Shown: positions 16,410 through 36,337 of the stretch, in pieces | Layout of the letters: each line of letters starts with the position of its first letter | How positions within the stretch are numbered: position 1 is the first letter of the stretch | Assembly: GCA_004369045.1 (NCBI GenBank) | Contig: ML213503.1 | Coordinates: 757,343 to 821,342 of the forward strand | Source: Heliocybe sulcata | Taxonomy: Eukaryota > Basidiomycota > Agaricomycetes > Gloeophyllales > Gloeophyllaceae | Reading direction: 5' to 3' | DNA: 64,000 nucleotides | The notes under the pieces: model-generated | Databases searched by the model: none | The model's input: the letters and a program-made list of their open reading frames with translations, nothing else | What the model was told of the DNA's origin: nothing | Made by a program: the position numbers and the translations under genes

Positions 16410-18011
16410 ATGTTCTGCTTGCCGTTCTTCAAGCGTTCTTCGCGCCCCAAAGGTACCTCCAAGCCCCCGCACGAAGATGCGCCACCTTCATATTCTGCTG
16501 CCGCCGAGTCCTCGCCGAAGACGACTATCTACTATGGTCGTATTGTCCATTCCAAGTCCTTGGCCAAACTCGAGATCCTCCCGGCAGCTGCGCTCGGCGT
16601 CGATTCGGATGGCAAGATATGCTTTCTAGATCCAGATGTGGCCAGCGGCCAGACCGCGCAAAAGAAGTATGCTGCGCAGGGGTTCGAAAACGCGACGGTG
16701 GTGACGCTGGGGAAGATGCAGTTCCTCTTCCCGGGTCTGGTTGATTGTCACTTCGTGAGCAGCATCGGACGTCGGCTGAACCGTCAGACTCTGACGGACT
16801 TGCACTGTGAAGCATGCGCCTCAATGGCCTAATAACGCACTGGGCATGGAATGGCCTCTGCGTGAATGGGTCGTGCACATGACCGACCCCATCGAGGCCT
16901 CCTACTCCGACACCTCGAAAGCCGAGCGCGTCTACTCCGCACTAGTACCCAAGCTCCTGGAGAACGGCACCACGACGGTCGCGTACAACTCCACCATCCA
17001 CGTCCCTGCGACAAAAGTGCTGATGAACCAGTGCTTGAAGTTCGGGCAGAGGGCGCTGGTAGGGAAGCTGTGTATTAACCATAGAGTGACTTCCGGGAAT
17101 GGGGAGAGCAGTGTGGAGGAGGGGCTGAGGCATTCGAGGGAGGTGGTGGAGTATGCGAGGGAGATTGATCCGGAGGGGAGGTTGGTGAGGGGGTGTATAC
17201 AGCCGAGGGGCGCGACGTATGTAGTGCCTGAGTATCTGAGGGGTCTGGGAGACTTGAGTCGGAACAAGGGAGGGGATATTATCCCCGTGCAGCTGCACAT
17301 GTCAGGTGCGGAAAGTCTTGAGGGAACCGCTTCCGTGTTCTGACTTTCCCCTCAGAGGCAATGCCCGACGTCGAGTACATGAAAAAGATGTACCCTAATG
17401 CGCCCTGCTACGCGTCGGTATTCGACGCGGCGGGGCTGATGCACGCACAGACCGTCGTGGCGCACGCGATCCACCTGACACCCATGGACATGGCCATTCT
17501 CGCAGCCTCAGGCGCGGGTGTCGCGCACAACCCGACGAGCAACACCTGTCTGACGGACGGCGAGTGCATGGTGCGCGAGCTGCTCGAGCATGGGGTCAAA
17601 GTCGGGCTGGGCACGGACTGCTCCGCGGGCTACTCGCCCTCCATCCTCGAGGGCATGCGCCAGGCGTCCAACGTCTCCCGGCATCGCACCATGCACTTCA
17701 ATAATGACGCGCTCAAGCTCTCTCTCGCTGAAATCGTTTACTTAGGCACGATAGGCGGCGCGAGCGTCGTCGGGCTGGCAGACAAGGTTGGGAACTTTCA
17801 GGTGGGGAAGGAGTTTGATGCGCTGGTGGTGGATACGGGGGTGGATGATAATGTGAATGTGGAGGGGTTTGAGGAGGATGGGAGGGCGATGGTGGCGAAG
17901 TGGGTGTTTTTGGGTGATGATAGGAGTATCAGGAAGGTGTTTGTGAGGGGGAGGCTTGTGGCGGGGAAGGATTTGAAAGAGGCTTCGTATAGGCAGATGA
18001 AGAAAATGTGA
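16410..18011 (+). CDS. Guanine deaminase
   Basis: Zinc amidohydrolase converting guanine to xanthine in purine salvage/catabolism (EC 3.5.4.3). The ATG at 16410 gives MFCLPFFKRSSRPKG. The metal-binding HxH sits across the first intron: FLFPGLVDCHF joined to HAPQWPNNALGMEWPL. Then come NGTTTVAYNSTIH, a third ligand region IPVQLHMSE (completed across intron 2), VVAHAIHLTPMDMAIL and HNPTSNTCLTDGEC. The catalytic aspartate is in VGLGTDCSAGYSPSILE. The C-terminal half of the amidohydrolase beta domain ends in KVFVRGRLVAGKDLK. Two introns (about 50 nt each). Length and all metal ligands are as expected. The last 250 bp shift to GTG/GGG-rich codons, but the frame stays open. Confidence 0.95.
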
Positions 18012-18046: not shown

Positions 18047-19244
18047 TCAGTTGGAGTGATAAGGAGCTCTGGCTTCAGTCTTCGCACTAACATGGTATTC
18101 AGTGAAATTATGTTTGTTTAGCGCGGAGAGTGCTAGGATCTCTCTGACCCCCCGCACAGCCGTTTCGCTAGTCCGCCATACAGCCCACTCTTTTTCGCCT
18201 CCGACGCCCATGCCCATCCCTTCCCGGCGGAAGGTCATTTGACTGTCAACCCAGCCACCGCCGCTCATATGAATTTCAGCAAGGCCGAACGGAAGGAGCG
18301 AGGCGAGTATGCTATGGACGGTATCCGCGTTTACCCCGGACCCGACGAGGACCGTTGGTGCACTGGGATCACTCTTCCAGGCTTGGAGGAGACTCTGCAA
18401 CGCGGCCATAGAATCGGGATTTTGTGTTGATACTTTGAGCCCGCTGTCATATTGATCAGGCAAGTCAGAGCCGTTTGTAGGGGATAGCACTACCTAGTTA
18501 GGATCCTTGATATCCCGGGTATTGATGCGACGGCTCGATATGCTACGGGGTGGAAGTTAGCTCATTGAATCATTGTAAGGGCGCAGGCAAAGTGGCTCAC
18601 ATTCTAATGCGTCGACCGACATGTCGAAGGCTCTGTGGAAACATACTTTTAGAGTCGCGTCAGACTAGATTCGACTATTTACTTAGGGAAATGAATAGAT
18701 AACCTTGCAAAGGACTGGCTGCCCCGACTAGTCTGTTTAATAGAGCCTCAGTTACCCAAGCCGCTGAGGCAAGCGTAGACGAACCGCTTTGTGCCAGAGG
18801 CGTCCACACGACCATCAGTTGTCAGGATCCCGAACACAAAGCCCGAGACGCAACCGGTCGCCTTGAGCTGGCGGATATCTTCGAGCATAACTTCAAGCTC
18901 GTCAGATGTATAGAGAAAGTCTCCGACTCTTGGGCGGATCATAACCTATAGTGTTATAGAGTCTAGTGAACATTGAAGTTTCCGGGAGATTTGGATTCGC
19001 TCACCATCAGTGGCACGTCCGTTAATTTCTGATGAATTGCCTTGACTAGACCTATGCTAGGCGTCGTGCCGCCGCCCAGTCCGAGATTTGCACAGACCTC
19101 GAGGCGGTCAGCACCTCCGTTGAATGCGCTGTAGGGGAATATTCATGGAAGCCCGTGTCGGAGTAGAGAACATATGACGAACGCCACAGCTGATTCGACC
19201 GAGTCTACGCAGACCTCCAATCGAATAGACTCTGTATCAGCCAT
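18047..19244 (-). CDS. CutC family copper homeostasis protein
   Basis: TIM-barrel protein of the CutC family, linked to copper homeostasis although the biochemical role is uncertain. The ATG at 19244 gives MADTESIRLEVCVDSVES. After an intron with a GTTCGT donor comes AFNGGADRLEVCANLGLGGG and LVKAIHQKLTDVPLM. Further exons read VMIRPRVGDFLYTSDELEVM, ATGCVSGFVFGILT, FHRAFDMSVDALE, VASIPGISRILTSG and finally the last exon ending EARAPYHSN. These are the defining CutC blocks in order. About five introns. The 36-bp gap to the guanine deaminase stop is very tight (convergent). A damaged copy of its 5' end lies near 22.7 kb. Confidence 0.88.
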
Positions 19245-19509
19245 CGAGAATGCGAATGAGAGTGGTTACAAGAGGTCTATAGATAAGATAAGTGGATGAT
19301 CGAACGCCGCAATGTCATCCATCTCTTGGCGGAGTCCGGTTTTCAATCCAAGCACGTACGTAGCAGCGTCGCACTCTTCCAGCCCCATCCAAGGCATGCG
19401 GGAGAAATGTATCACGAGAACAGCCGGAATGTTCTCGTCTCCCAATGGTAATCGGTAGACATACTTATTTTCCCAACTTAAGAGAGCATCTTTGCAGGGG
19501 TACATATGC

Positions 19510-19745
19510 ATGATTGCACAATAGCATTCCGACGAGAACACTAGTTCTACTATATGAATCACTGCCTGACCCGGACACTGGTGAAATGAGCATACTTGAA
19601 TGGAACTTGCAGGTACGGTAACTGTACATACAGAGAGCTCGCGGCCGTACCAGGGCCATATTATGAAGATTTGTGGGGAGTATGTGATGAAGCAAATTAG
19701 ACAGAGAGTGAATCCAACAAACAGGCGACCCAACGAGCGTCCTAT
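19510..19745 (-). pseudogene. PFA4 5'-end fragment, copy A
   Basis: Minus-strand sequence matches exon 1 of the intact PFA4 at 30020: the translated block [12 protein letters not shown] then [12 protein letters not shown] is nearly identical. Most base differences fall at third positions or give conservative changes (A/T, T/S, V/I). The position equal to the PFA4 start codon is ATA (19743-19745) instead of ATG, and the frame is lost after the WPWYGREL block. The DHHC catalytic part is absent. This is a truncated, non-functional duplicate. Confidence 0.75.
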
Positions 19746-19883
19746 GAATGAGTGGAAGGAAGGAGTCGAGCGTCAGAGTAACAAGGGTGTGCTCTCCGAA
19801 TGCGGTGCTATAGCTGCGACTCCCGCCACATTTTGCCAAATGGTCTTTTCTGAACCTCCCCGGACGTATGACTCTCGTCCTAC

Positions 19884-20968
19884 ATGTGGCCTGCATCTTT
19901 TGCGCGGGCCCTGCCTTCAACACGAGCTGATGTGATAGTTCGGCTAAAGATTACTCGACATTCCCTTGATGTGGCCAGCCATGGAGCAACACAGACCGAC
20001 TCGAATGCGTCCATGTACAATCCCGTTGCCCGCCTACTCGGATTCACTAAAGAGACGTCCTCCAGCAAGTCTACGAATGTGCCTTCGAGGCGTGTTACAG
20101 CTCCTATAGCGAGCTCATTTGAGGATATAGCGATCGGTGAGTAGGCTTATGACTCCATGGATTCTTTATGAAAATTGAGAACGCCCTAGAAAACTTGCCA
20201 AGAATAACGCCGACAGGAGAGTCGAAGGCTGATGCTCCTCTCTTTCCGACTCCGAAGGGTGCCGGGAGTTCCATCTTTGCTCGTCGCTCATCGCAGAGGC
20301 AGCGGAAAACTGATCCATCTATATTCGCGGACCCACCTCATACTACCACATCCCTCCAACCCAACCTCCACTTCGAAAGGCCCTCAGAGGGTGCACCTGC
20401 TGAGAGGCCATCTCAAGCGTCAAAGTCACCCTTCCACCGAAGCTCAGAAGCCGAATCCCGCTGGAAACGACGCGAAGAAGCTCAGTCTGTGTCCCAGATG
20501 GCTCCAGCAGCTCCTGGTCGTCTCCCGCAACAGCGTTCAGATAAACCGACGTCTGTCCTTGCTGTGCAAGTAGAGGAGTCGACCTCAGAAGAGCCTAGTC
20601 AGGAAGCTGCGAAAGGCACTGAAGAGGAAGGAGAGCGTGAATTGAAGAATGCCGTAGAAAATGTGCCAAGGATAACGCCGCCTGGTCCGCCGATAGGAGA
20701 GCGGAAGCCTGATCCTCGTCTCCGTCCGACTCTGAAGGGTGCCGGGAGTTCCACCTTGGCTAGTCGCTTGATGGAGAGGCAGCAGGAAGGTGGCCGGCCT
20801 AAGTCCACGACGGGCAAAAGGCCTGTCCCTACAGCTGTCCGCACCATCAAAGGATACGGGAGTTCCACGTTAGCTAGTCGCTTGATGGAGAGGCAGCAGG
20901 AAGGTGGCCGGTCTAAGTGCACGGCCGGCAAAAGGCCGGTCCCTACAGCTGTCCGCACCATCAAATAA
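19884..20968 (+). CDS. Copy A of the predicted mitochondrial gene, C-terminus replaced
   Basis: Paralogue of the gene at 30177. The ATG at 19884 opens a similar Arg-rich N-terminus (MWPASFARALPSTRADV), with 24 extra codons in exon 1. A conserved intron, 20137-20189, interrupts the same codon as in the parent, and exon 2 stays open to 20968 (343 residues in all). Shared blocks are RITPTGESKADAPLF, PTPKGAGSSIFARR, and SVSQMAPAAPGRLPQQRS. The parent's conserved C-terminal region (AGDYNRYFPAH onward) is missing. In its place is a second copy of the exon 2 start plus a 114-bp tandem repeat. The internal duplication includes the old intron's 3' end, now read as coding. It may be an expressed derivative or a decaying copy; function unknown. 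Confidence 0.5.
20738..20965 (+). repeat. 114-bp direct tandem repeat, two units
   Basis: Units 20738-20851 and 20852-20965 are nearly identical, encoding GSSTLASRLMERQQEGG and then GKRPVPTAVRTIK twice. The unit is 38 codons, so the frame is kept. It sits at the very end of copy A. Confidence 0.85.
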
Positions 20969-20996
20969 TACCGTGACAGTCAGACACCCGTGCACC

Positions 20997-21066
20997 AATG
21001 AGCTTCATGGTCAACACGGTATAATAATCTACGTCCGTCTACAGCCTCCTGGGCTTGAAACTTGAA
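20997..21066 (+). repeat. Fragment resembling the OLE1 upstream region
   Basis: The run from GGTATAATAAT at 21017 to about 21060 matches the 50 bases just before the OLE1 start codon (23342-23392) with few differences, including ACGTCCGTC and CCTCCTGGGCTTGA versus TCTCCTCGGCTTGA. The OLE1 coding sequence does not follow. It marks a duplication junction. Confidence 0.65.
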
Positions 21067-21079
21067 ACTCCACAGAGCA

Positions 21080-21312
21080 TGATTCCATAATGCATTCCGA
21101 CGAGAACACTAATGCCACTATATGAATCAGTGTCTGACGGGGACACTGAAATGAGCGTACTTGATTAATGGAACTTGCAGGTACAGTACTAGTACCAACT
21201 GTACAGAGACGTACCAGGCCTAGGGCCGTATTATAAAGATTTATAGAGTGTACGATGAAGCAAATTAGACAGAGAGGGCACCTGATAGAAAGACGAACCA
21301 GAAGTGTCCCAT
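21080..21312 (-). pseudogene. PFA4 5'-end fragment, copy B
   Basis: Homologous to PFA4 exon 1 and the following intron/exon 2 start. The start codon equivalent is kept (21312-21310), but the frame breaks inside the first transmembrane stretch, and only the segment CPLCLICFIVHS is recognisable in another frame. Exon 2 remnant includes LVFSSEC-like sequence. No DHHC domain follows. Clearly more decayed than copy A. Confidence 0.65.
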
Positions 21313-21440
21313 AAATAACCGGAAGGAAGTGGTTGAGCGTCAGAGTAACAAGGATACGCCAACATCGTCGAAGAGGCCTTCCCGCCACATTTGCCAAATT
21401 GGTCTTTTCCACAATGCGCCAACCTTCACTCTCGTCCTGG

Positions 21441-22332
21441 ATGCGACCTGCATCTCTTTTGCGGACCCTGCGTCTAGCAAGAGCTGATGTGGCAGCTCAG
21501 CCACAGATTGCTCGATATTACTCTGACGAGGCCACCCAAGAACCAACGCAGAACAAACCGAATGCGCCTCCGAGACGTGTTAGAGCTCGTGTAGCGAGCT
21601 CATTCAAGAGTATATCGAAGGGTGAGTAGTATTATGGCTTGGTTTCTTTGTGAAATTGAGAATGTCCTAGGAACCGCGCGAAGATTATCGCCGTCTGCGC
21701 TGCCGACAGGAGAGTGGAAGGCTGATCCTCGTTTCTCGCCGACTCTGAACAGCGCTGGGAGTTCCACCTTTGCCAGTCGGTTGACGGAGAGGCAGCGGGA
21801 AACTGATCCAACCATATTCACGGACCCGCGTCATCGGGGTTTGCGAGGGCCCTCAGGAGCATCAAACTCACCCTTCCAAAGACGCTCAGAAGTCGAGCCT
21901 CGCTTGAACCAACTAGCAGATGACAGGCCATCCGGAGCGTCGAACACACGCTTCCCAAGACGCTCAGAAGCCAAATCTCGCTGGAACGACTCGGACATCA
22001 CAGGCCATCCGGAGCGTCAAACTCACGCTTCCCGAAACGCTCAGAGGTCGAATCTCGCTGGAAACGACTCGCAGATGAGAGGTCATCGCGAGCGTCAAAC
22101 TCACGCTTCCAAAGACGCTCAGAAGTCGAACCTCGCTGGAACCAACTCGCAGATGACAGGCCATCCGGAGCATGAGCGCTTACGCTTCCCGGAGCGCTCG
22201 GAGGTCGAATCTGGCTGGAAACGACTCGCAGATCAGATGTCATCGCAAGCGTCAAACTCACGCTTCCAAAGACGCTCAAAACTCGAAGGAGACGGCTCGC
22301 AGATGACAGGCCATCTGCATCAGGAGCGTTAG
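21441..22332 (+). CDS. Copy B of the predicted mitochondrial gene, repeat-expanded
   Basis: Second paralogue of the gene at 30177. ATG at 21441 gives MRPASLLRTLRLARADV and ARYYSDEATQE, very close to the parent; exon 1 has the parent's exact length (181 nt). Intron 21622-21670 has the same phase. Exon 2 starts with LPTGEWKADPRFSPT, then SSTFASRLTERQRETDP, and then runs into a 78-bp minisatellite until the stop at 22332 (280 residues). The parent's C-terminal region is absent. The reading frame remains open even though individual repeat units of 77 and 79 bp shift it and then restore it. Function unknown; may be a non-functional but still open copy. Confidence 0.45.
21850..22327 (+). repeat. 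About 78-bp minisatellite, roughly six to seven units
   Basis: The marker GGAGC/CGAGC preceded by CCATC recurs at about 21855, 21933, 22010, 22088, 22166, 22245 and 22322, giving spacings of 78, 77, 78, 78, 79 and 77 bp. The unit encodes 26 residues around RSEVESRWKRLADD. The parent gene and copy A contain one unit only, so the array expanded in copy B. Confidence 0.85.
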
Positions 22333-22369
22333 AGCTATTTTCAATATTATTAGATGCTCAGAAGTTGAA

Positions 22370-22690
22370 AAAGTCCCAATCCGCGATATATCAATCGGTG
22401 AGTAGTCTTATGGCTTGGTCTCTTGGCGAAGTGGAGAACCCCGTAGAAAATGTGCGAATAATAACGCTGTTTGCTCCGCCGACAGGAGAGTGGAAGGCTG
22501 AACCTCGTTTCTCTCCGACTCCGAAGGGTGTGGGAGTTCCTGCATTGCTTGTCGCATAACGGAGAGGCAGTGGGAAACTGATCCGTCTAAATACACGGCG
22601 GGCAAAAGGCCTGCAGTGGCGCAAAAAGAAGGATAGCCTGTCCTTTCAGCTGTCTGCACCATCGAAAAGGACACCGCGACAGTCAGACCT
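22370..22690 (+). pseudogene. Third partial copy of the mitochondrial gene (intron plus exon 2 start)
   Basis: Begins with the last bases of exon 1 (GATATATCAATCG), a full GTGAGT..CCGTAG intron, and exon 2 with the blocks PTGEWKAEPRFSPTPKG. The frame is lost around 22555 and no start region is attached. After it comes a short stretch that resembles the end of copy A (GCTGTC..GCACCATC..GACAGTCAGAC). Confidence 0.7.
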
Positions 22691-22704
22691 CAGGCAAATA
22701 AGCA

Positions 22705-23220
22705 GGCATGCACCGACGCGACGGCTGACTCGACCGGGTCTATATGCAGACTTCCGATTGAATATGCCGTCGAGAAGTTTGCGTTTGGACAAGAGGTGCG
22801 CGGTGATCGATCATCATCCGGGGTCTACAGGCTCATGATCAGACGCCACAATCGGCCCTTGTCATCCATCTCTTGGACGCAGTTTTAAGCATCGTGCAGG
22901 GCTGTACAACACATCCTTCATACGTGAATATTGTCCCATGCTGCCAAGGAGGAGTCTGGAGAAGCAGCCGATTGCCTTGACTCTTTCAACCCGACTTAAG
23001 GCATGCGCGAGAAACGTATTCCTGGGGGGGAAACCTGTCATTTATATGCTTATATAACCCAAACTACTACGACTATACCGAGAATCCACCGTCAAGAGGA
23101 ACAAGGCTCCCACTGCTCCCCGTTGAAGAGCCACGAAAGCACAGCGACCGCTCGCAATTGAGAGCCGGAGTGTCCTCGTCTCCTAATGGATATGGTAATT
23201 GGTAGACGTACCTACTTGAC
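22705..23220 (-). pseudogene. Degraded copy of the CutC 5' end and its upstream region
   Basis: Bases 22722-22775 match the first exon of CutC (19190-19244), but with substitutions that remove the start codon and add stops. Further homology to the CutC upstream region is visible at CATCCATCTCTTGG (22864 versus 19316), GGCATGCGNGAGAAANGTAT (about 22999 versus 19394) and CTCGTCTCC..GGTAAT..GGTAGAC (about 23175 versus 19434). No other gene is seen between here and OLE1. Confidence 0.6.
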
Positions 23221-23392
23221 CTACAGCATGGAGAATCGGAGACAGCCCGCCCCAACCAGGCAACCTCGCCACCATCAAATCTGCGAATCTGCGATCGCGT
23301 CAACCTTAATGGCCTCACCGCATGAACGGATCTGATGAGTCCGGTATAATAATTCACGTCCGTCCGCAGTCTCCTCGGCTTGAGCGCAAACC

Positions 23393-25320
23393 ATGTCCTA
23401 CTCCTCCTCCCAGGCCGCATTCAAGACGCGTCGGCCCAAGATATGGTGGAGTAACGGCATATTTTTTGTCGGTGCCCATGTTGCGGCGGCGATGGGGATG
23501 TACTACAGACCGTTTTACGCGGTCCCGCGCGCGACTTTGGTTCTCGCGTTTGTGCTCTGGCAATTAGCCGAGTTCGGGTACGTTGCGAATATCCATATGC
23601 TAGTAGGTTGTAAACTCATACCCTTGTAGAGTGACAATTGGGTATCACCGTTTATGGTCGCATCGTGCTTTCAGAGCTGCTCCGGGAGTCCGCATCGTTC
23701 TCGCTGTCCTAGGCTCTTCCGCGTTCCAGGGATCTATCAAGGTGAGCAAGGAGCCACCGGCAGGCGAGAATATTGACCATTGACGGGATGTGCGTACAGT
23801 GGTGGTAAGTGCACAAGTCTGCTTCACAACCACTCAATACCGACACCCTTCACTCCAGGTGTCTGAGACATAGGCTGCATCACGTATGTCATGAAGTCGT
23901 CGCATGCGTTCCCTCATTAACCAGCTCATAGCGGTTCACGGATGACCCTGTTCATGACCCGTCAGTACACTTCCCGTCCCCGATTACAGAAGCCTGACGC
24001 GCCTGTTGGATGCAGATACTCCGCAACCCGCGGTCTGCTTTTCTCCCATGTTGGCTGGATATTTTTCAAGCCAGTCTACGAGAAGATGTCCTTAGTGGAT
24101 AGAGAAGACCTTGAGAATGATCCCGGCAAGTCTCCCTCTGCTGCGCACAAGACTTCTTTTATGCTGAAGTATTGCTCCCAGTCGTGATATGGCAGCACAA
24201 GTACTTCGGTGCGCAAGCCTCGGTATCCGCCTTCGTAGTCCAGACTGAAAACCCGTTCCAGTCTACCTCGCCCTCGGGCTTGGCCTAGGTTTCCCAACGC
24301 TGCTCGGTGCTCTCTGGGGCGACGCCTTGGGTGCCTTTATATGGGCCGGGCTGACTGCCAGGCTGTTGAGTAAGTTCGTCCCGTCACCTATAGAGCATGG
24401 ACAAACCGTTCAACATTCATTTCAGTATGGCATTGCACGTTCCTCGTAAATTCGTCCGTGCATCTGCCGAGTTAGGAGATTGAAATACTGACGATGTCCT
24501 CTAGCCTGGCACACTGGGATGGCTTGCAGCCCTATTCAGACGATAACACGTCGCGGGGTAACTTTGTAAGTGGGCGGTTGGTTCGATCCAGGGACATACC
24601 TTGACGAGAGATGAAATCGCAGATCCTCGCGGTCCTAACTGCCGGCGAAGGAAACCATAATTTCGTAAGTGTCCCCGTCTCGGACTAAAAGTTCCATCTG
24701 ACATGTATCTGAAGCATGTACGCGTATAACCAGAAGATGCAAATTCCACTGACCAAACGACCCCTCAGCACGCATTCCCTCACGACTTTCGCTCGGGCCC
24801 CTCTTGGCTTGACTGGGATCCGTCTAAATGGATCATTCTGGCTCTCCACCGGATGGGACTCGTATACAGCCTTCGCACCGCAAAGGGAGTGGACATCGAG
24901 GAGGCTAGAGAGTATATGAAGGGTCACCACCACAGCCACCACGAATCCATCCCTGAGGAAGATGAAGAGAATTGGAAGTGGGAGAAAGGACTTTGGAGCA
25001 AGGACGATGTGCAAAGGTATATTAGCGAGAGGCCGGAGAGGTGCGTTCTGCTAGTGGGCGGGTACCTGTCGGATGCTACTGGGTATATGAAGGAGCATGT
25101 AAGTAGCCTTGTGGCTCGGAGGATGCGACATTGCTGAAGGCATCTTCGACAGCCTGGCGGCTCCGTTCTGTTGAGAGAGTATTCCATCAGGCCGCATAAG
25201 TCGGATGAGAAGGAAACGTGGAGAGACGCGAGTTGGGCTTTCGATGGCGGTTTAAATAACCATTCTAGAGCCGCGAAGAAGCGCTTAGCGGAGTTACGGA
25301 TTGCGAAGCTTATAGCCTAG
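23393..25320 (+). CDS. OLE1: Acyl-CoA delta-9 fatty acid desaturase with cytochrome b5 domain
   Basis: ER membrane enzyme that introduces the delta-9 double bond into palmitoyl- and stearoyl-CoA (EC 1.14.19.1). The ATG at 23393 gives MSYSSSQAAFKTRRPKIWW. Membrane segments follow, then the three iron-binding histidine boxes in order: GYHRLWSHRAF, LRHRLHHRFTDDP and GEGNHNFHHAFPHDF. C-terminal to these is a cytochrome b5 domain with the heme histidine in MKEHPGGSVLLREY; the b5 fusion is usual for fungal Ole1. The protein stops at TAG 25318-25320. About ten short introns. The 5' flank is bordered by duplicated sequence, and part of its upstream region has been copied to 21.0 kb, so promoter boundaries may have been altered. 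Confidence 0.94.
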
Positions 25321-25569
25321 AGACTCTTGTCATTACAGCACTAGTCTTGGTCTGAATAGAGCTGCTTGAAGGGTTGGAGCAGAGACGTTACACGGCGCGG
25401 TGTGACCATGAGTATCGTGACAATGTCGCGTGTACTGGTCACGTGCTTGGGCGCGGCGTCTGAGGTCCGTGGCCCGATTCAACGCAGGGAGAGACGAGGG
25501 TTGCTGCCAGCACCAGAATACCCCCAGTAATTGCTTCACACTATTCCCCCTCCGTATATCGAGGCCGCT

Positions 25570-27893
25570 ATGGTCAACATGAAGAGAGAGCTCGAGCTGA
25601 TGGCCGCGAACGAGGTCGATCCGGCTGCCCCGCGCGCCAAGCGCCGCAAGGAGGCGTCCGCAGCCAGCCCGGATAACACAGCGGACATGCAGGACGTTAA
25701 GGTGGAGGAAGGCGCGGAGGGAGGAGGAGAGGGAGGGGGGCAGACGCTGGAGAGTGTGAGGGAGCAGGGGATGCAGATATGGAAGGCGGTCAAGGATGCG
25801 GTGAGCAAAGAGTGCGTACCGGGTGCGCGCAGGGATTCGAGTTGCCGCGGGTCCAGCCTTGCGCTCTCGTCTTTCCGCGTCTCGCGCGCAGGGTGCTTAC
25901 GATGCTCGGTGCAGGGGGCGAGCGCTCTCGCTGGATTTTATGCGTCTGCCGTCGAGAAGACAATATCCGGACTATTACCAGCTGATCAAGCGGCCTATGG
26001 CGCTGGACGATATCCGGGCTCAGCTGCAGCGAGGGCAGTATATTTCTCTAGATTTGGTCAAGACGGATTTAGAGCAGGTGTTTGTCAATGCGAAGAGATA
26101 CAATTTGAGAGATAGTCAGATCTGGAAGGATGCCAAGGCGTTGCATGTGAGCCCTCCCGTTCCTCTGTGTTTTCAGCGCGCTCCTTCGTCTTGAGATCGC
26201 GCGTGAAAGCGCTGCGACATGCATGCTTTTTTACGACGCTTTTGATTGTCCGTTTGTCGACGAATGTAATCTGACAATGACTACAGAAAATCGTCAAGAA
26301 GGAATATGCAAGGATAACTGGCACCGCAGAAGAAGAACCAGGCGATGGCGGCGAGAAGGCCGAGGGTGAAGGCTCTGACAATGAACGCGACAAGAAGTCC
26401 AAGAAAGCGCCTAACATGACTCGACTACTGAAGAGCAGGCTGCAGAAGCTGGTGGAGAAGACGGATGACAGGTACGTCCTCAAACTACACAAATCGACTG
26501 CATCCTCCTAAATTCGGAATCTTGTTCAGCGGTCGCGTTCTGTCGGAAGAGTTCATGGAACTGCCCAACAAGAAGCTATGGGCTTTGTACTACAAGGCTA
26601 TCAAGCGGCCGCAATGTCTCGAGAATATTTTTGTGCGTCTGTGTCCCGCTCGTTTCTGATGTATGCCTTACGTTTTGCGCATATACTGTGATATAGAAGC
26701 ATCTCAAGCGCAAAGAGTACCACACTTCAGCCGAATTTGCCAGGGACGTAGAGCTCGTATTTTCCAATGCACTAGAGTTCAATCAAGACCACACTCCGAT
26801 ATGGGAAGATGCGCTGACGTTGCGAGTACGTCCAACACCGTGCAAGCGTCGTGTATTGTTGACCGGATTGTCCCAGGATTACTTTCGCAAACTTATGTCG
26901 GATTTACCAGCGCCGTACGCTCTCCCTGAGTACGCTTCTCCAGAGAAGCCTGCCGCAGCCCAGCCCAGCACCAAGATTAAACTCAAGATGCCCGCAGCCG
27001 GTCAGCCTTCTGCAGCACATGGGCCTTCTGCGGAGAAGGCCTCCCCGCCGTTGACCCTCCGCGTCCCAAATGGGGGCCAAAGCTCACCACCAGTACAAAG
27101 CCAGACGACGGACTCTGCCAAGACCAAGCCGCCCGCGTTGGCCCCTCTGGCTCCGGCTACTCAGGCGCCGACACCTATTGCTCCCAGGGCGCCGGGCGTG
27201 AGCGGTCTCCAAATCCAACCGGCACCTGCCCAGGCGGGTGGTACGTCTCAAGTGGCCGCTGTTCCAGCACCTTATCATTATGCTAATGCGACCTACCCTC
27301 ATGCCGGGACAACGACAACTATGGCGGCCGCAGCACTGGGTCCTGCACCGTCGCCCGTCGGCTCCAATCCTCCTGCGCAACAGGCTACGGAGAAGACAGC
27401 CTCTACATCCCCCGCTCCCCCGCCTGCGCTGCCCAAGTCGCAGCTGAGGCATATATCGTTGTCCACAAGCCCCGTCACGCGACGCATTGATCTCGATGTC
27501 GAAGATGGAGTGAAGAGCTGGGCGATGCGTCTGACCACCGGCGAGCGTGCAGTGACGGTTAAAGACGTCAGCTTTTTGGAGGAAAAGGAGAGACGCGATG
27601 AGAAAGGCGAGGAGCATGAGCAGGCGGAACCTGGCAAGGATACTAAAGGCAAAGGCAAGGCAAAGGGCGCTTCGAAAAAGAAGGATGAGACGCCTGCGGA
27701 TCCAAAGCCTTCGGTCAATGGCAAGGCAGCCAAGGGTCCGGAAGCCCTGCAGGTGCTACTGAACGGGAGCTTAGTGAAGTCAATGCAGGGCAGTGAATGG
27801 CATGTCGAGTTACCTGTTGGGTCCAGCACGCTGGAGCTCGGAGAGCAAGGAGGTGCGGCATGGAAAGTTTACTTTGACCGTCCACCGTTGTGA
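25570..27893 (+). CDS. RSC4-like double-bromodomain chromatin remodelling subunit
   Basis: Nuclear protein with two acetyl-lysine-binding bromodomains, resembling Rsc4 of the RSC/SWI-SNF remodelling complex. The ATG at 25570 gives MVNMKRELELMAANEVD. Bromodomain 1 carries RLPSRRQYPDYYQLIKRPM and VNAKRYN (conserved Asn). A spacer rich in acidic/lysine residues follows. Bromodomain 2 carries LWALYYKAIKRPQCLENI and FSNALEFNQDHTPIWEDA. A long Pro/Ala-rich linker (about 26940-27450) leads to a C-terminal domain ending SSTLELGEQGGAAWKVYFDR, stop at 27893. Intron 1 skips 25811-25914 so that SKE joins GRALSLDFMRLP. About five introns. ATG at 25579 is an alternative start. Polybromo-type proteins have more domains, so RSC4 is the best fit. 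Confidence 0.85.
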
Positions 27894-28060
27894 ACGAGGG
27901 TCAAGCGTCTCTTGGTTATTCTTGCTTTGCTTAATTTATCACTGATATCCCTCTTATTGCCCATTAATGCAGCTCTCGTAGTATTTCCGTCGGTACATTG
28001 TAGATATAGCAGCTCAGCTTGGTATAATAGATAGAGGTGGAATGAAATCCTTGATTCTCA

Positions 28061-30020
28061 CTACGATGCTTTCATCGCAAGGCTTTGAGGAAGAGGGCCC
28101 TTCTTTTCTTCCTCTTCCTCTTCGCTGGGCGTATCCGGCTCCGGCACATATCTTTGATATCTGCCAGGTTCACTTGCTTGACTCTGGATATACCTATGCA
28201 ACAGACCCTCGCGGTCTATCGAAGGCACCTCGTATCCTTCAGAACCATGACGAACCCTAACGCCCCATTTACCCTTGTCGCTGACAGGATACTCATCTTC
28301 TGACCCGGAATCTGAATAGAAACCCGGTTGGCGCTCAACGTAGGCGGATGCATCGTAGTCAGGGTGGTACGGTGGCAAGGCCATATGTGAAGAAGGCGAG
28401 CTGCGTTGGCGTAGGCCTGCACCCGAGGAAGGTCGAAGATCGGGATTCAGGGCACCGTTTTCGTAGGTCCAAGGAGATGTGGGTAGCTCGAATTCGTGAT
28501 CTTCGTCTTGCTGTTCAGCAAGATCCTCCGGTGGCCAAAAAGATTGAGAGTGTGGCTCTGTACAACGTCGTGAGCAAACGCAGTATCGACTGAAAAATAA
28601 GTAAAGAAAAAGAAGGAATGCTGCATCTAGATCAGGTTGCGTGATGTATACAGAGATGGCTTACTCACATGCTGGCTTGGAGTCCCAAGGCTCAAGCTAT
28701 ACGATCTCTCGCCCGCTTGGATATCCTCGTGACTGATTCAGTTCCATCCACTTACCACTGCTTTCGGCAAGTTGATACTTCAGACCTGTCCCGGGGACTA
28801 CAGTCGGCCAGCACCATAGCCATGGATTATTGCCGAGAACGGATGCGATATTGCGTCGAGCGCCGAGGTTCTGGAGGTGGTTCAAGTCAAAGTTCACGCT
28901 CTGTTTCAGACTGAGTAGGTTAAGTGGCTTACATATGGGAATTTTATCTGATGAAGTTCAGAATCAGCCTTGATTCTTCCGGGATAAGGTCGAAACCATA
29001 CCTCATTGATTTTACCATGGCGAACGAGCCGTGCAACCTTATCTTTCTCCCAACCTTCAATAGTGGTGGTATTGCCAAGCAGACAATAGAAGTGGTATAT
29101 GCTAGAGTCACCTACGGATGAGCTGCGTTCCGAATGGGTTCAGCCCATTACCTACCTAAAGGCGCCAACGGACAAGATTACGGGTATGCAGGCGGTGTAG
29201 TTGAGGATCGTCAAAACAAGCTCTTTCGTAGAAGGTTCTTCCTACATGTGGATTAGACACCCGCCCAATCCCTTTCCAAGCTCTGGCGACGTACCCAATA
29301 TCTGGGATCCATCCAATGGAACACTCGACGAGTCACCATGGCAAGATGGTATGAACAGGCGAGGTCCACGTAGAAAAGAAACCGCACGAAGTGACCATAA
29401 TTGAAGTGACCGACACAGTTATTCACCCAAGGGCAATGATGGTCTGAAGGAGGTTTGGATATTAAGCGCCGGCATACGGGCTAGTACATACCCATCCTAA
29501 GGACACATCTGATAGCAAATTACAAGTCAGTGACAACATATCTCAGCCTGTAAGCGTACAACTCACTTGTCGCACTGCCTGCAATGGTGCGCCCTGGGGG
29601 GCTTGTACTTCTCGCATGTTCGACAGAATCTTGGCCCACCGGTCAATCGTTTAACTTCATAGCCATCTCCAGAGTTTACGTCCGGGACCTAACAGATTGT
29701 TTTGAGTTCACAACAATAGCGAGCATTGAACCAGGTTACTGACCCAGGACTGCGGGACCGATCCAGGGTCCGTCCTGACGCAAAGAGCGTAATTCCATAA
29801 CAGCATTCCGACCAAAACACTGGATGCACTATATAAGTCACTGTCTAATTGGAACGAGAGTGAATTACGCGTACTTGAATGGAACCAGCAGATACAGTAA
29901 CGACACAGAGAGCTCGCGGCCGTACCAGGGCCATATTATGAAGACTTGTGGGGTGTATGCGATGAAGCAAATTAGACACAGAGTGAACCCAACGAACAGA
30001 CGACCCAGCAAGCGTCCCAT
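28061..30020 (-). CDS. PFA4: Palmitoyltransferase PFA4 (DHHC family)
   Basis: ER-resident S-acyltransferase; in yeast Pfa4 palmitoylates chitin synthase Chs3. The ATG at 30020 reads [15 protein letters not shown], then [25 protein letters not shown] intron joins LLVPFN to [20 protein letters not shown]. The DHHC-CRD follows: [20 protein letters not shown], then CVLRM joined across an intron to [19 protein letters not shown]. Later exons give [40 protein letters not shown] and an acidic tail ending SLAMKAS. Four hydrophobic segments are visible. All motif residues of the Zn-binding and catalytic DHHC core are present. About nine introns. Divergently paired with the mitochondrial gene; this pair was the source of the duplications at 19.5-22.7 kb. 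Confidence 0.93.
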
Positions 30021-30176
30021 GAATAACCGGAAGAAAGGGGTTGAGCGTCAGAGTACAGCATCGTCGAAGAGGGTATGCTCTCCGAACGCGGTTGCGACTC
30101 CCGCCACATTTGCCAAATTGGTCTTTCCTGAATGCACCGACCTTCCCCCTCCTTCTGAATCGTACTCTCGTCCTGC
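30021..30176. promoter_or_regulatory. Shared divergent promoter, PFA4 / mitochondrial gene
   Basis: The start codons are 156 bp apart. The whole interval, including the CCCGCCACATTTGCCAAA stretch at about 30098-30116, is conserved in copies A and B (about 19822 and 21380). A region kept through duplication is a candidate for core control elements. Confidence 0.6.
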
Positions 30177-31398
30177 ATGCGGCCTGCATCCCTTTCGCGC
30201 GCCCTGCATTCAGCAAGAGCTGATGTGACAGCTCAGCTACAGATTGCTCGATATTACTCTGATGTGGCCACCCAAGGACCAAGGCAGAACGAATCGAAGG
30301 CGCCTCCGAGACGTGTTAGAGCTCCTATAGCGAGCTCATTCGGGGATATATCAATTGGTGAGCCGTCTTATGGCTTGGGTTCTTTGTGAAATTGAAAATG
30401 CTCTAGAAAATGTGCTAAGGATAACGCCGTTCGCCTCGCCGGCAGGAGAGTGGAGGCCTGATCCTCGTCTCTCTCCGACTCCGAAGGGTGCCGGGAGTTC
30501 CACCTTTGCTAGTCGCTTGGTGGAGAGGCAGCGGGAAACCGATCCATCCATATTCACGGACCCGCATCGTCCGAGTTTGCGAGGATCGCTGACCGTGGAC
30601 CCGGATACTACGACATCCCGCGAGCAGACCCGGATTTCCAGCCGTCAGTCTGGCAAACGAGTCAGGCCAACTATGTGGAATAGACGGGGTGACAAAACTC
30701 CCACCAACCCAGGGTTATCAGAGCGGGGTGGCCCCCCTCAAACTGCACCTGGGGGATCGCCTTTAGCAGTGCCCAACTTCCGCTTGCAAAGGCGCCCAGA
30801 AGTCGCACTTGCTGATAAGCCATCACGAGTGTCAACATTACGCTCCCAAGAACCTCGCTGGAAACGACACGCAGAAGCTCAGTCTGCGTCCCAGATGGCT
30901 CCAGCAACTCCTGGTCGTCTCTCGCAAAAGCGTTCAGATGAACCGGCGTCTGTCTCTGTTGTGCAAGGAGAGTCGTCGACCTCAGGAGAGCCTACCAAGG
31001 AAGCTGTAGATGGTACTGAAGAAGGCAGAGAGAATTCTCTCAGTCTCCGCGCTAGCGAGCGCAATGTTCAACCGTCTTTGGTTCAACTCGAAGACGCGCT
31101 ACAAGGCTTGTTGGGCGAGCCCGTAGACCAGGAAACGACCACCCTTCCGTCCGCATCATCCAATACGTCAATAAAATCTCACCGGACGCAGATACTCATG
31201 GAAGAGACCGCCGGGGATTACAATCGCTACTTCCCGGCTCATCTGCAGTCGAAGCTGATGGAGCCAGAACAGCTGGGTCCGGTCAGATACGCCCAGTGGG
31301 CTTTGTTGCGGCAGCGGCAGGCGGGTTTGGCAGCGAAGCACGCTGCGTTGGGGATTGTCAAAAGATATGCAGGAAGCGCGAAAGAGTCGCGAGAGTGA
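30177..31398 (+). CDS. Predicted mitochondrial protein, parent of copies A and B
   Basis: Two exons (30177-30357 and 30407-31398; 390 residues). The N-terminus MRPASLSRALHSARADV is an Arg/Ser/Ala-rich helix without acids, followed by ARYYSDVATQG, where RYYS resembles a matrix-processing site. The middle is Ser/Pro/Arg-rich low complexity with TPKGAGSSTFASRLVERQ. The C-terminal 70 residues look structured and conserved in style (AGDYNRYFPAHLQSKLM, then LGPVRYAQWALLRQRQAGLA). I do not recognise the family with certainty; a fungal mitochondrial ribosomal small-subunit protein is a guess. Exon 1, intron position and exon 2 start match copies A and B; only this copy keeps the C-terminal block, so it is likely the functional one. 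Confidence 0.7.
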
Positions 31399-31536
31399 GC
31401 CACTGTACACCTTAGAGCGTATAATAGGTGCAATACATGGATACTGAATAATCAAGACCACGGGCAAGCAAAACGAGTGTACAAAGATGGTGAGATATTA
31501 TAGGGTACTTCGAGTAAGAAAGGGCTAGGGCTACAA

Positions 31537-33564
31537 CTATCCTCCTTTGAATGCGACATCAACCTCTGCAACCTCCGGAGCTGGCGCCGAATCCATCACA
31601 ACGTCCGCATCACCGACCCTGGTGTCCTCTGTAGCAGGGCGGTCGATCTCCATACCATTTGAGATGCCGTTAACCTCCTCTGCCTCTTCCTCTTCCTCTT
31701 CCTCCGCCTCCTCCTCCTCCTCTTCCTCCGTCTCGTAGCCTGGAAGAAGCCAAGGCGGCAGCTCAAAATCCCGGAATTCCTCCACCTCGAAAGGAACCTT
31801 CAAGCCAAACGCAGTCAGGTGCCGCTGCGTCTTTCTGACGTTAGGCTCGCCCGCGTTTCGTTTGGCGGTTGCGAGAAGGATGCACTGCGAGTTGCGTTCC
31901 CCTTTCTTCGAGGCATATATCGAGCCGTCTGCAGCATCACGGACGATATCGGAGTGGGTGTACGACTTTTGGGCCGATAGCCTGCGTGCCGCACTGTGCG
32001 ATATCTCGCCATTCTCGTCCTGGATCTTGGGTATCTTGTAGGGCAACCAGCGCCCGTCGGGTCCGCGCTCCTTGTTGGAGAGATGAGCATGAGTGCTGAT
32101 TGCCGAACCAAAGTCTGAATTTCCTTCTCTTAGCTGCCATTGGTTTATTATGCCAGCAGAATGAACGAACCTGGGTCTAACGGGAACGATGTGTGCCCGG
32201 CAATCTGCCGTATAGGCGACATCGCCAGGCCAGAAGACGACTTCAGTTTCTTAAGCCCTGCTATCGACGCAGACTGGATTTCAACGCTGGGACGCAGTCT
32301 GATCTTCAGCTTGATTTTTTCCGGTGACTTTCGTGTCGCCGCTCTCCGCTCCTCAACGTCAATCTCCGACTCCCCATCGTCGTCTGGGGCCTCTTCCTCT
32401 GTAACAGATATCTCTAGCTCCTGTTTATCGTCTTCTTGCTGCGCCTCCTCCTCCTTCTCCTCCTCCTCCTCCTCCTCCTCCTCTTCGTAGACAGGTGCCT
32501 CGGGTTTGGGCTGGAGTTCAGGTTCCACGGAGAACGAGGCACTCTTTCGCCGTGCAGCATTCTTACCCCTCTCCATCCACCTCCGATCAGGAGGCAATAG
32601 CAGGTTATACCGCTCTTCCAAGCCCTTCGCGATATGGAGCATCTCTTGTCGTCGCCGCTCGCCTTCTGCATGTGCGGCTGCGCCATTGCCACCGGGGAGC
32701 TCCTCATCCGCCTGCTTAGCAGACACTGGGTCGCTTGGTGTTGATAAAGCCGACACCGGCAGAGCAAGGAAGGCCGCGGCGTCCATAGCGCGAAGTTGGT
32801 CGATGCGCTCCTTCAGCTTGTACTGCTCGTGCTTGAGCTTCTCCTTCTCCCTGAGACGCTGCCGTTTTTCGAATGTCTCGTACTTGCGGTGTCGCTTTTC
32901 ATATGCGGCGTCCAGCGTATCTGCCAACTCCTGTAGGACACAGAAGGATTATAGTGCGGAATAGCAGGTTGTGGATATGACAGCAATAAGTGTAGGTATA
33001 CAGAGAGAGATAATGTACACGGACATCTTCGGACCCTCGAGGCCTGAACCTGCTACCAACGCTGGCGTCCTCCGTTAAGAGAGTATACTCGGGTGTTTGT
33101 ATAGTTTGCTGCTCTCGGTAAGCCTTGATAACCTCCGGGCGGTCAAAGTATCGCTCGTAGGCGGAGCTGTTCAGTTCTATCTCGAAAGACGATGCCGAGG
33201 TAGAGGGTATAAGGGAAGAATTTGTTGTCAAGAAGAATCTCGTGTCGGCTGGTATTAGAGGTTCATTCTCGACTTCGATTAGGAGGTCAATTAGACTGTT
33301 CGGTTAATGATTGGCGAGGAACGTACACTTCCTCCTGTGTGCCTCCAGAATCATTACATCGACATCGCAGCTGCCTATCCCCGGTCCTCCTCGACGCGAG
33401 CGCGAAGGAAGCACTCGTTTCTGTCGCGTATTGGGAGTACCCCGGTCTTTTGCAACCGACGCCGGTCCGTTCGCGCTCGTGTCGGCGGCTGACGTGGAGG
33501 GCGTCACGTCCTGCGCGCGCTGCTTGCCAGCCCGTTTGCCAGATATGTTGTTGCTCATAGTCAT
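31537..33564 (-). CDS. Basic/acidic coiled-coil nuclear protein, possibly SAS4-like
   Basis: The ATG at 33564 gives MTMSNNISGKRAGKQRAQ, a basic Ser-rich tail, then KRVLPSRSRRGGPGIGSCDV and VMILEAHRRK. A 61-nt intron joins NEPLIPADTRFFLTTNSSLI. A later exon is strongly charged and helical: KRHRKYETFEKRQRLREKEK, then EQYKLKERIDQLRAMDAAAF. A Glu tract from CTC/CTT repeats lies at about 32440-32490. The last exon gives GPDGRWLPYKIPKIQDENGE and FRDFELPPWLLPGYE before another Glu tract, ending AFKGG at 31537. The RGGPGIG..CDVD motif with a charged helix recalls SAS4-type chromatin proteins, but I am not sure. About five introns. The first exon's codons are clear; the last junction is inferred. Confidence 0.6.
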
Positions 33565-36253: not shown

Positions 36254-36335
36254 GGACCTGTAGCTCAGTGGTAGAGCGTGTGATTCCAGTTCAGGAACCT
36301 CCACAAGGTCATCCGTTCAATCCGGGTCAGGTTCA
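36254..36335 (+). tRNA. tRNA-Trp(CCA) with a 10-nt intron
   Basis: The acceptor stem is GGACCTG/CAGGTTC, the D-arm is GCTC..GAGC, and the T-arm is ATCCG-TTCAATC-CGGGT. The anticodon loop holds CCA at 36286-36288. A 10-nt intron at 36290-36299, directly after G37, is needed to give a normal 17-nt anticodon arm. The bases TTCC before the intron can pair with GGAA inside it, as in eukaryotic pre-tRNAs. The stem keeps four pairs plus an A-C mismatch at 31/39. Discriminator base A at 36335, 3' CCA not encoded. Confidence 0.78.
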
Positions 36336-36337
36336 CA

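What the first reader, a model, noticed from the sequence alone, without database searches (positions are those of the whole stretch)
19190..23392. Mosaic segmental duplication built from three neighbouring loci
The CutC-OLE1 interval is a patchwork: pieces of the CutC 5' end, the OLE1 upstream region and the PFA4/mitochondrial divergent pair appear in an order not found at their sources. The PFA4 pair lies 7-10 kb away beyond OLE1 and RSC4, so this is not plain tandem duplication. It suggests repeated template switching or unequal exchange at a local hot spot, and it creates new gene fragments and possibly new promoters.
Basis: seen in the sequence. Interest (0 to 1): 0.8.

Follow-up and report, generated by a model that had tools for sequence, protein, structure and literature searches.

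The report
Patchwork of copied fungal gene starts
In this fungus-like DNA the space between two genes is filled with old, partly decayed copies of the beginnings of neighbouring genes, which doubled a shared control region and left two possible new gene versions; the way it arose may be quite ordinary, but the locus shows well how new genes and promoters can be pieced together.

Summary
Between CutC and OLE1 (19.18-23.39 kb) lie, all in direct orientation: A (CutC exon 1 + promoter), Y1, C (OLE1 core promoter), Y2, A', C', OLE1. Y1 and Y2 copy the 5' part of the divergent pair PFA4<- ->gene X, whose intact version is at 28-31.4 kb. The PFA4/X locus is the donor: both copies break off at the same point inside PFA4 exon 2, and donor-specific changes are depleted in exons plus promoter relative to introns. 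Introns are kept, so this is not retroposition.

"Not plain tandem duplication" does not follow: a direct duplication of at least 8.3 kb, a 6.4-kb deletion in its left copy, a local [C-Y] duplication and a small deletion give the same order (4 steps, against 3 for copy-paste). Template switching stays open; the one microhomology looked at (6 bp) is matched by 3% of random pairs.

X1 and X2 keep open two-exon frames without frameshifts in the compared exons, while same-block PFA4 and CutC fragments are broken; but dN/dS is about 1. They may be young chimeric genes or lucky relics. No fungal relative could be searched, so cross-species history is untested.

The parts
19181..19490 (-). A: CutC exon 1 (about 19183-19244, minus strand, MADTESIRLEVCVDSVESAVA) and its upstream region, the native copy; CutC body lies to the left
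   Evidence: tblastn 19244-19002; Pfam CutC E 4.5e-33 on the hand-joined exons; blastn to A'
19508..20635 (+). Y1 first part (X1a): truncated PFA4 5' end (minus strand, start codon changed) + divergent promoter + X exon 1 (19884-20136), intron, exon 2 from 20190, matching the donor up to 31032
20637..21003 (+). Y1 second part (X1b): second copy of X exon 2 start (from late in the intron), fused in frame, 114-bp tandem repeat 20743-20965, X1 stop at 20966-20968, tail shared with Y2
21017..21058 (+). C: copy of the OLE1 core promoter / 5' untranslated region (TATA-like TATAATAA)
   Evidence: 36 of 42 identical to 23342-23383, score 30 against best shuffle 14
21071..22332 (+). Y2 first part (X2): truncated PFA4 5' end (frame broken) + promoter + X exon 1 (21441-21621), intron, exon 2 (21671-22332) with 78-bp repeat array 21848-22287
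22377..22703 (+). Y2 second part (X3): X fragment from the end of exon 1 / intron onwards, 1-base deletion in exon 2, same tail as X1b
22716..23237 (-). A': decayed copy of CutC exon 1 and promoter; frame shifted, start lost
23342..23392 (+). C': native OLE1 core promoter / 5' untranslated region up to the start codon (ATG at 23393)
29781..30020 (-). Donor, PFA4 side: last part copied is PFA4 exon 2 (29787-29820), intron 1 and exon 1 (to start codon at 30020)
   Evidence: tblastn and reading frames; DHHC Pfam E 3.9e-29 for the downstream exons; left edge of all copies
30177..31398 (+). Donor, gene X (X4): exon 1 30177-30357, intron 30358-30406, exon 2 30407-31398, 390 aa, N-terminus like a mitochondrial targeting peptide, no Pfam or PDB relative

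Best explanation
It is an old local segmental duplication of the 5' ends of two divergent gene pairs, built in several steps. Shown: the CutC exon 1-promoter-OLE1 5' segment exists twice (A..C and A'..C'), and a PFA4 5'-promoter-X segment copied from the PFA4/X locus exists twice (Y1, Y2), all in direct orientation; PFA4/X at 28-31 kb is the source. Inferred: (1) a direct duplication of at least 8.3 kb from CutC exon 1 to beyond gene X; (2) a deletion of about 6.4 kb (OLE1 coding, RSC4, PFA4 3' part) from the left unit, giving A-C-Y-A'-C'-OLE1; (3) a local duplication of [C-Y]; (4) loss of one C between A and Y1. A jump of a replication fork to PFA4/X and back would replace steps 1-2 with one event and gives the same product. 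The result is that CutC and OLE1, once sharing one short divergent promoter, each keep one copy, 3.5 kb apart, and two chimeric X genes lie between, each with its own copied promoter.
For: Block map. Truncation of both copies at the same point in PFA4 exon 2, with no similarity to PFA4 beyond it (scores 11 and 11 against shuffle maxima 15.5 and 12.5), so one export from PFA4/X. Donor direction: PFA4 is whole at 28-30 kb, fragments have a lost start (Y1) and broken frames (Y2). Donor-specific changes are 27 of 152 singletons in exons+promoter but 15 of 30 in introns (Fisher P 0.0005). Retained introns in X1, X2 and X3. K2P distances of all block pairs 0.11-0.37, mostly 0.16-0.28 with overlapping intervals. 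Search over rearrangement histories: intermediate reached in 2 steps and final order in 4 with direct duplication and deletion only; 2 and 3 with copy-paste.
Against: Four steps are one more than copy-paste needs. No trace of C is left between A and Y1, nor of anything of CutC between Y1 and C (score 6, 290 of 300 shuffles as good). The tail shared by Y1 and Y2 matches neither the sequence downstream of X4 nor any other part of the window, although step 1 predicts that it came from there; loss at the donor has to be assumed. In PFA4 exon 2 the donor has more singletons than the copies (5 against 2 and 0), against the constraint pattern. Trees of the five exon-2 copies are unresolved (supports 54 and 42).
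Confidence: 0.55

Rival explanations
1. Replication-based template switching (MMBIR/FoSTeS/MMIR type): a fork passing CutC and the OLE1 promoter jumped ahead to PFA4 exon 2, copied through X, and jumped back to CutC exon 1, making A-C-Y-A'-C' in one event; a second event made Y1.
For: Gives the order in fewer events (copy-paste search 3 steps). Parents share the 6-mer CGCAAA at the inferred OLE1/PFA4 junction. Divergence of all blocks is similar. Yeast segmental duplications of this kind make chimeric open frames (PMC2518615, abstract and section 16 read).
Against: 6-bp or longer matches occur in 3.1% of random pairs and the breakpoints were chosen after seeing the sequence. Intron singletons (15 donor, 9 X1, 6 X2; P 0.04) suggest that Y1/Y2 split later than the export, that is at least two times. 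No inverted pieces.
Confidence: 0.33
2. Y is a transposable element or part of one that captured the PFA4/X 5' ends.
For: Y1 and Y2 share left and right edges within about 15 bases and sit at two different flanks.
Against: No inverted terminal repeats or inverted pairs in the interval; the left edge is inside PFA4 coding DNA; all copies lie within 12 kb in the same orientation and none in the other 52 kb of the window; no Pfam match for X. The rest of the genome could not be searched.
Confidence: 0.05
3. X1 and X2 are simply decaying pseudogenes and the locus has no present function.
For: dN/dS 0.84-1.69 with intervals that include 1 in all five comparisons; nonsynonymous share of lineage changes 35 of 43 (X1) and 30 of 37 (X2), not below the neutral 71%; X1 has lost the RYYS motif of the leader.
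Against: No frame-shifting indel in the compared X exons of either copy, against 9 in the flanking non-coding and PFA4 DNA of the same blocks (P 0.0016, or 0.0066 without the middle block); neutral chance of a stop-free X1 frame 0.02, of X2 0.025 over all 280 codons or 0.29 over the 113 conserved ones; splice sites kept.
Confidence: 0.55

Closest known systems
Yeast segmental duplications from Pol32-dependent repair of broken forks (Payen et al. 2008, PMC2518615; abstract and section 16 read)
   Same: Direct local copies with junctions inside genes; chimeric or truncated open frames at junctions while the source genes stay intact.
   Different: Those are fresh, 41-655 kb according to the passage in PMC4232551, with readable breakpoints; here the pieces are 0.04-1.6 kb, about 20% diverged, with an interleaved order.
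CUP1 tandem arrays of Saccharomyces cerevisiae (Zhao et al. 2014, PMC4232551; abstract, start of introduction and part 1 of the discussion read)
   Same: Short direct duplications with breakpoints in intergenic DNA and inside a neighbouring gene, made without long flanking repeats.
   Different: Regular arrays of one unit under selection for copy number; here a mosaic of two units with a deletion.
Template-switch gene amplification, ODIRA (PMC11790251; abstract only)
   Same: Replication-based copy gain in a fungus.
   Different: ODIRA makes inverted triplications; nothing is inverted here.

Membership tests
Local segmental duplication | Copies with source loci, longer and more alike than chance | tested here: met
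Plain direct tandem duplication (no deletion) | Copies in source order without gaps | tested here: not met
   Y1 lies between A and C; OLE1 coding, RSC4 and PFA4 3' part have one copy each at E<=1e-6; search for duplication-only histories did not finish
Direct tandem duplication followed by deletion | Order reachable by duplications and deletions, direct orientation | tested here: met
   4 steps; no inverted copies. Compatible, not proof
Direct tandem duplication followed by deletion | Junction Y2-A' shows DNA from downstream of the donor | tested here: not met
   Tail has no match near 30900-31600 (score 13, 15 of 300 shuffles as good; score 10, 185 of 300) or elsewhere in the window
MMBIR/FoSTeS/MMIR product | Microhomology at junctions | tested here: inconclusive
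   CGCAAA at one junction, 3.1% by chance; other junctions not scored
MMBIR/FoSTeS/MMIR product | Dependence on Pol32 or equivalent | not testable with these tools
   Needs experiments
Transposable element | Terminal repeats, target duplications, dispersed copies | tested here: not met
   No inverted pairs, no copies in the other 52 kb; genome-wide part not testable; target-site duplications not tested
Processed retrocopy | Introns lost | tested here: not met
   X intron kept in X1, X2, X3; PFA4 intron 1 kept in X1, X2
New protein-coding gene | Open frame with splice sites | tested here: met
   343 and 280 aa
New protein-coding gene | Purifying selection on the amino-acid sequence | tested here: not met
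   dN/dS about 1
New protein-coding gene | Transcription and translation | not testable with these tools
   No RNA or protein data

The most novel reading that the evidence does not exclude
The duplicated promoters rebuilt the locus: the ancestral CutC/OLE1 divergent promoter was doubled and pried apart, uncoupling a copper-handling gene from the fatty-acid desaturase, and the gap now holds two working chimeric genes (X1, X2) that brought along the PFA4/X promoter, whose proteins keep their frame but change freely (frame-protecting selection with dN/dS about 1 or slightly above).
Probability: 0.25. Interest if true: 0.6.

Novelty: new member of a known kind. Interest (0 to 1): 0.38.

Why it matters
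It is a compact natural example in which the donor, direction and order of copied pieces can be read, and in which one block carries its own controls: PFA4 and CutC fragments that decay beside X frames that do not. If the X copies are expressed, it shows how copying of divergent promoters with first exons makes ready-to-run new genes, and how two genes can be freed from a shared promoter. If not, it is a routine relic.

Tried and rejected
Rejected: (a) the idea that + strand open frames 19600-19935 and 29824-30228 are a conserved upstream gene (dN/dS 0.68, 0.39-1.10): they are antisense to PFA4 exon 1. (b) Transposon: see rivals. (c) Retrocopy: introns kept. (d) A tree of the five exon-2 copies to order the events: supports 54 and 42, useless. 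(e) Naming gene X: no Pfam family, no PDB relative (best E 1.8), a poor fold of its C-terminus (pLDDT 53), no relative in viral contigs (12 pattern matches, none confirmed). 'Mitochondrial' rests on the look of the N-terminus only. (f) tRNA or Rfam elements in the interval: none; one tRNA elsewhere. (g) The sigma-70 and terminator scan is meant for bacteria and showed nothing above shuffles. (h) Literature: searches gave general mechanisms; CutC+OLE1+PFA4+basidiomycete (3 of 4 terms) gave no paper.

Error found and mended: the 344-codon run for X1 included the real stop codon, so its 0.005 is wrong; one search gives 0.021 for 343 codons. Notes give 344 and 281 aa; the right lengths are 343 and 280. 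One search stopped at its time limit with 5 of 8 planned runs done (copy-paste-only to the final order and both duplication-only runs missing); its histories use single-letter blocks, strings of at most 19, and require each source gene to stay intact. The indel lists were typed in.

Full report
What is there. The window (64 kb, 53% GC) reads as fungal DNA with short introns; the species is not known and no whole genome is held. PFA4 and X start codons are only 156 bases apart.

The mosaic. Whole-window self-comparison finds 20 direct repeats at E<=1e-6, all in this family, and none inverted. A finer comparison adds the short blocks. In order: A 19181-19490, Y1 19508-21003, C 21017-21058, Y2 21071-22703, A' 22716-23237, C' 23342-23383, OLE1. 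A and A' are CutC exon 1 with its promoter; similarity stops at the exon 1 splice site. C and C' are the OLE1 core promoter and end just before its start codon. Y1 and Y2 each hold a PFA4 5' fragment, the divergent promoter, X exon 1, intron, the first part of exon 2, then a second partial copy of exon 2 and a shared tail. Shuffle controls: A/A' 40 against 17, C/C' 30 against 14 (100 shuffles each).

Direction. PFA4 is whole at its own locus. In Y1 its exon 1 is still 34 of 39 residues alike but the start codon is changed; in Y2 the frame is broken. Both copies end at the same place in PFA4 exon 2 (29781-29787), where longer coding similarity would be easy to see, and the flanks to the left score no better than shuffles. 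So one export from PFA4/X, then duplication at the new site. Single-lineage changes support this: in exons and promoter the donor has 27 of 152, the copies 57 and 68; in introns 15, 9 and 6 (Fisher P 0.0005). One class goes against it: PFA4 exon 2 has 5 donor changes against 2 and 0. The surplus in introns (P 0.04) hints that Y1 and Y2 split after the export; this is weak.

Age. K2P between block pairs: A/A' islands 0.11-0.28, C/C' 0.16, X upstream 0.19-0.23, tail 0.24, exon 2 copies 0.19-0.37 (the high ones involve X1b). The intervals are wide and mostly overlap. The events are old and may be close in time; their order cannot be dated from this.

How it arose. That does not follow. A direct duplication from CutC exon 1 to beyond X (present-day 22716-31032, 8.3 kb), followed by loss of 6.4 kb from the left unit, gives A-C-Y-A'-C'-OLE1 in two steps; a [C-Y] duplication and a small loss give the observed order in four. 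The first four-step path that the script printed uses two separate deletions with the same right end; I prefer the [C-Y] path because it explains the shared truncation and shared tail, and this preference is inference. Copy-paste needs three steps. Against duplication plus deletion: the tail does not match DNA beyond X4, and no C remains between A and Y1. For a fork jump: CGCAAA is shared at the OLE1/PFA4 junction, but 3.1% of random pairs do as well. I put duplication plus deletion ahead because every copy is direct, and keep template switching as a strong rival.

Are X1 and X2 genes? Both have intact two-exon frames (343 and 280 aa; X4 390 aa). In the compared exons no frame-shifting indel is found (X1: 72, 12 and 15 bases; X2: none), against 9 in the adjoining non-coding and PFA4 DNA (P 0.0016; 0.0066 without the middle block). 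Neutral simulations leave the X1 frame stop-free in 2% of runs and X2 in 2.5% (280 codons) or 29% (113 conserved codons). Against: dN/dS is 1.69, 1.12 and 0.84 in the conserved part and 1.45 and 1.64 in two other parts, all intervals including 1; the pooled nonsynonymous share, 65 of 80, is if anything above neutral (P 0.04); the 78-bp array of X2 (21848-22287) is read in more than one frame of its repeat unit; X3 has a 1-base deletion. Frame kept, sequence free: that fits a leader-carrying disordered protein, or luck.

Verdict. The uncommon points are the doubling of a divergent promoter and the frame-keeping chimeric copies.

Noticed in passing
21848-22287: 78-bp minisatellite (about 5.6 copies) inside X2 exon 2; X1 and X4 hold about one unit (20401-20478, 30813-30875).
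   Followed up: partly
20743-20965: 114-bp direct repeat, two copies, in frame at the end of X1.
   Followed up: partly
29898-30228 and 19600-19935: Long open frames antisense to PFA4 exon 1, which could be mis-annotated as genes.
   Followed up: yes
36254-36336: tRNA-Trp gene, likely with a short intron since it is 83 bases long.
   Followed up: no
17361-18011: C-terminal part of an amidohydrolase gene (Pfam E 1.3e-34), ending about 35 bases before the 3' end of CutC.
   Followed up: no
20930-21003 and 22636-22703: Tail shared by Y1 and Y2 with no match elsewhere in the window: perhaps a third source outside it.
   Followed up: partly
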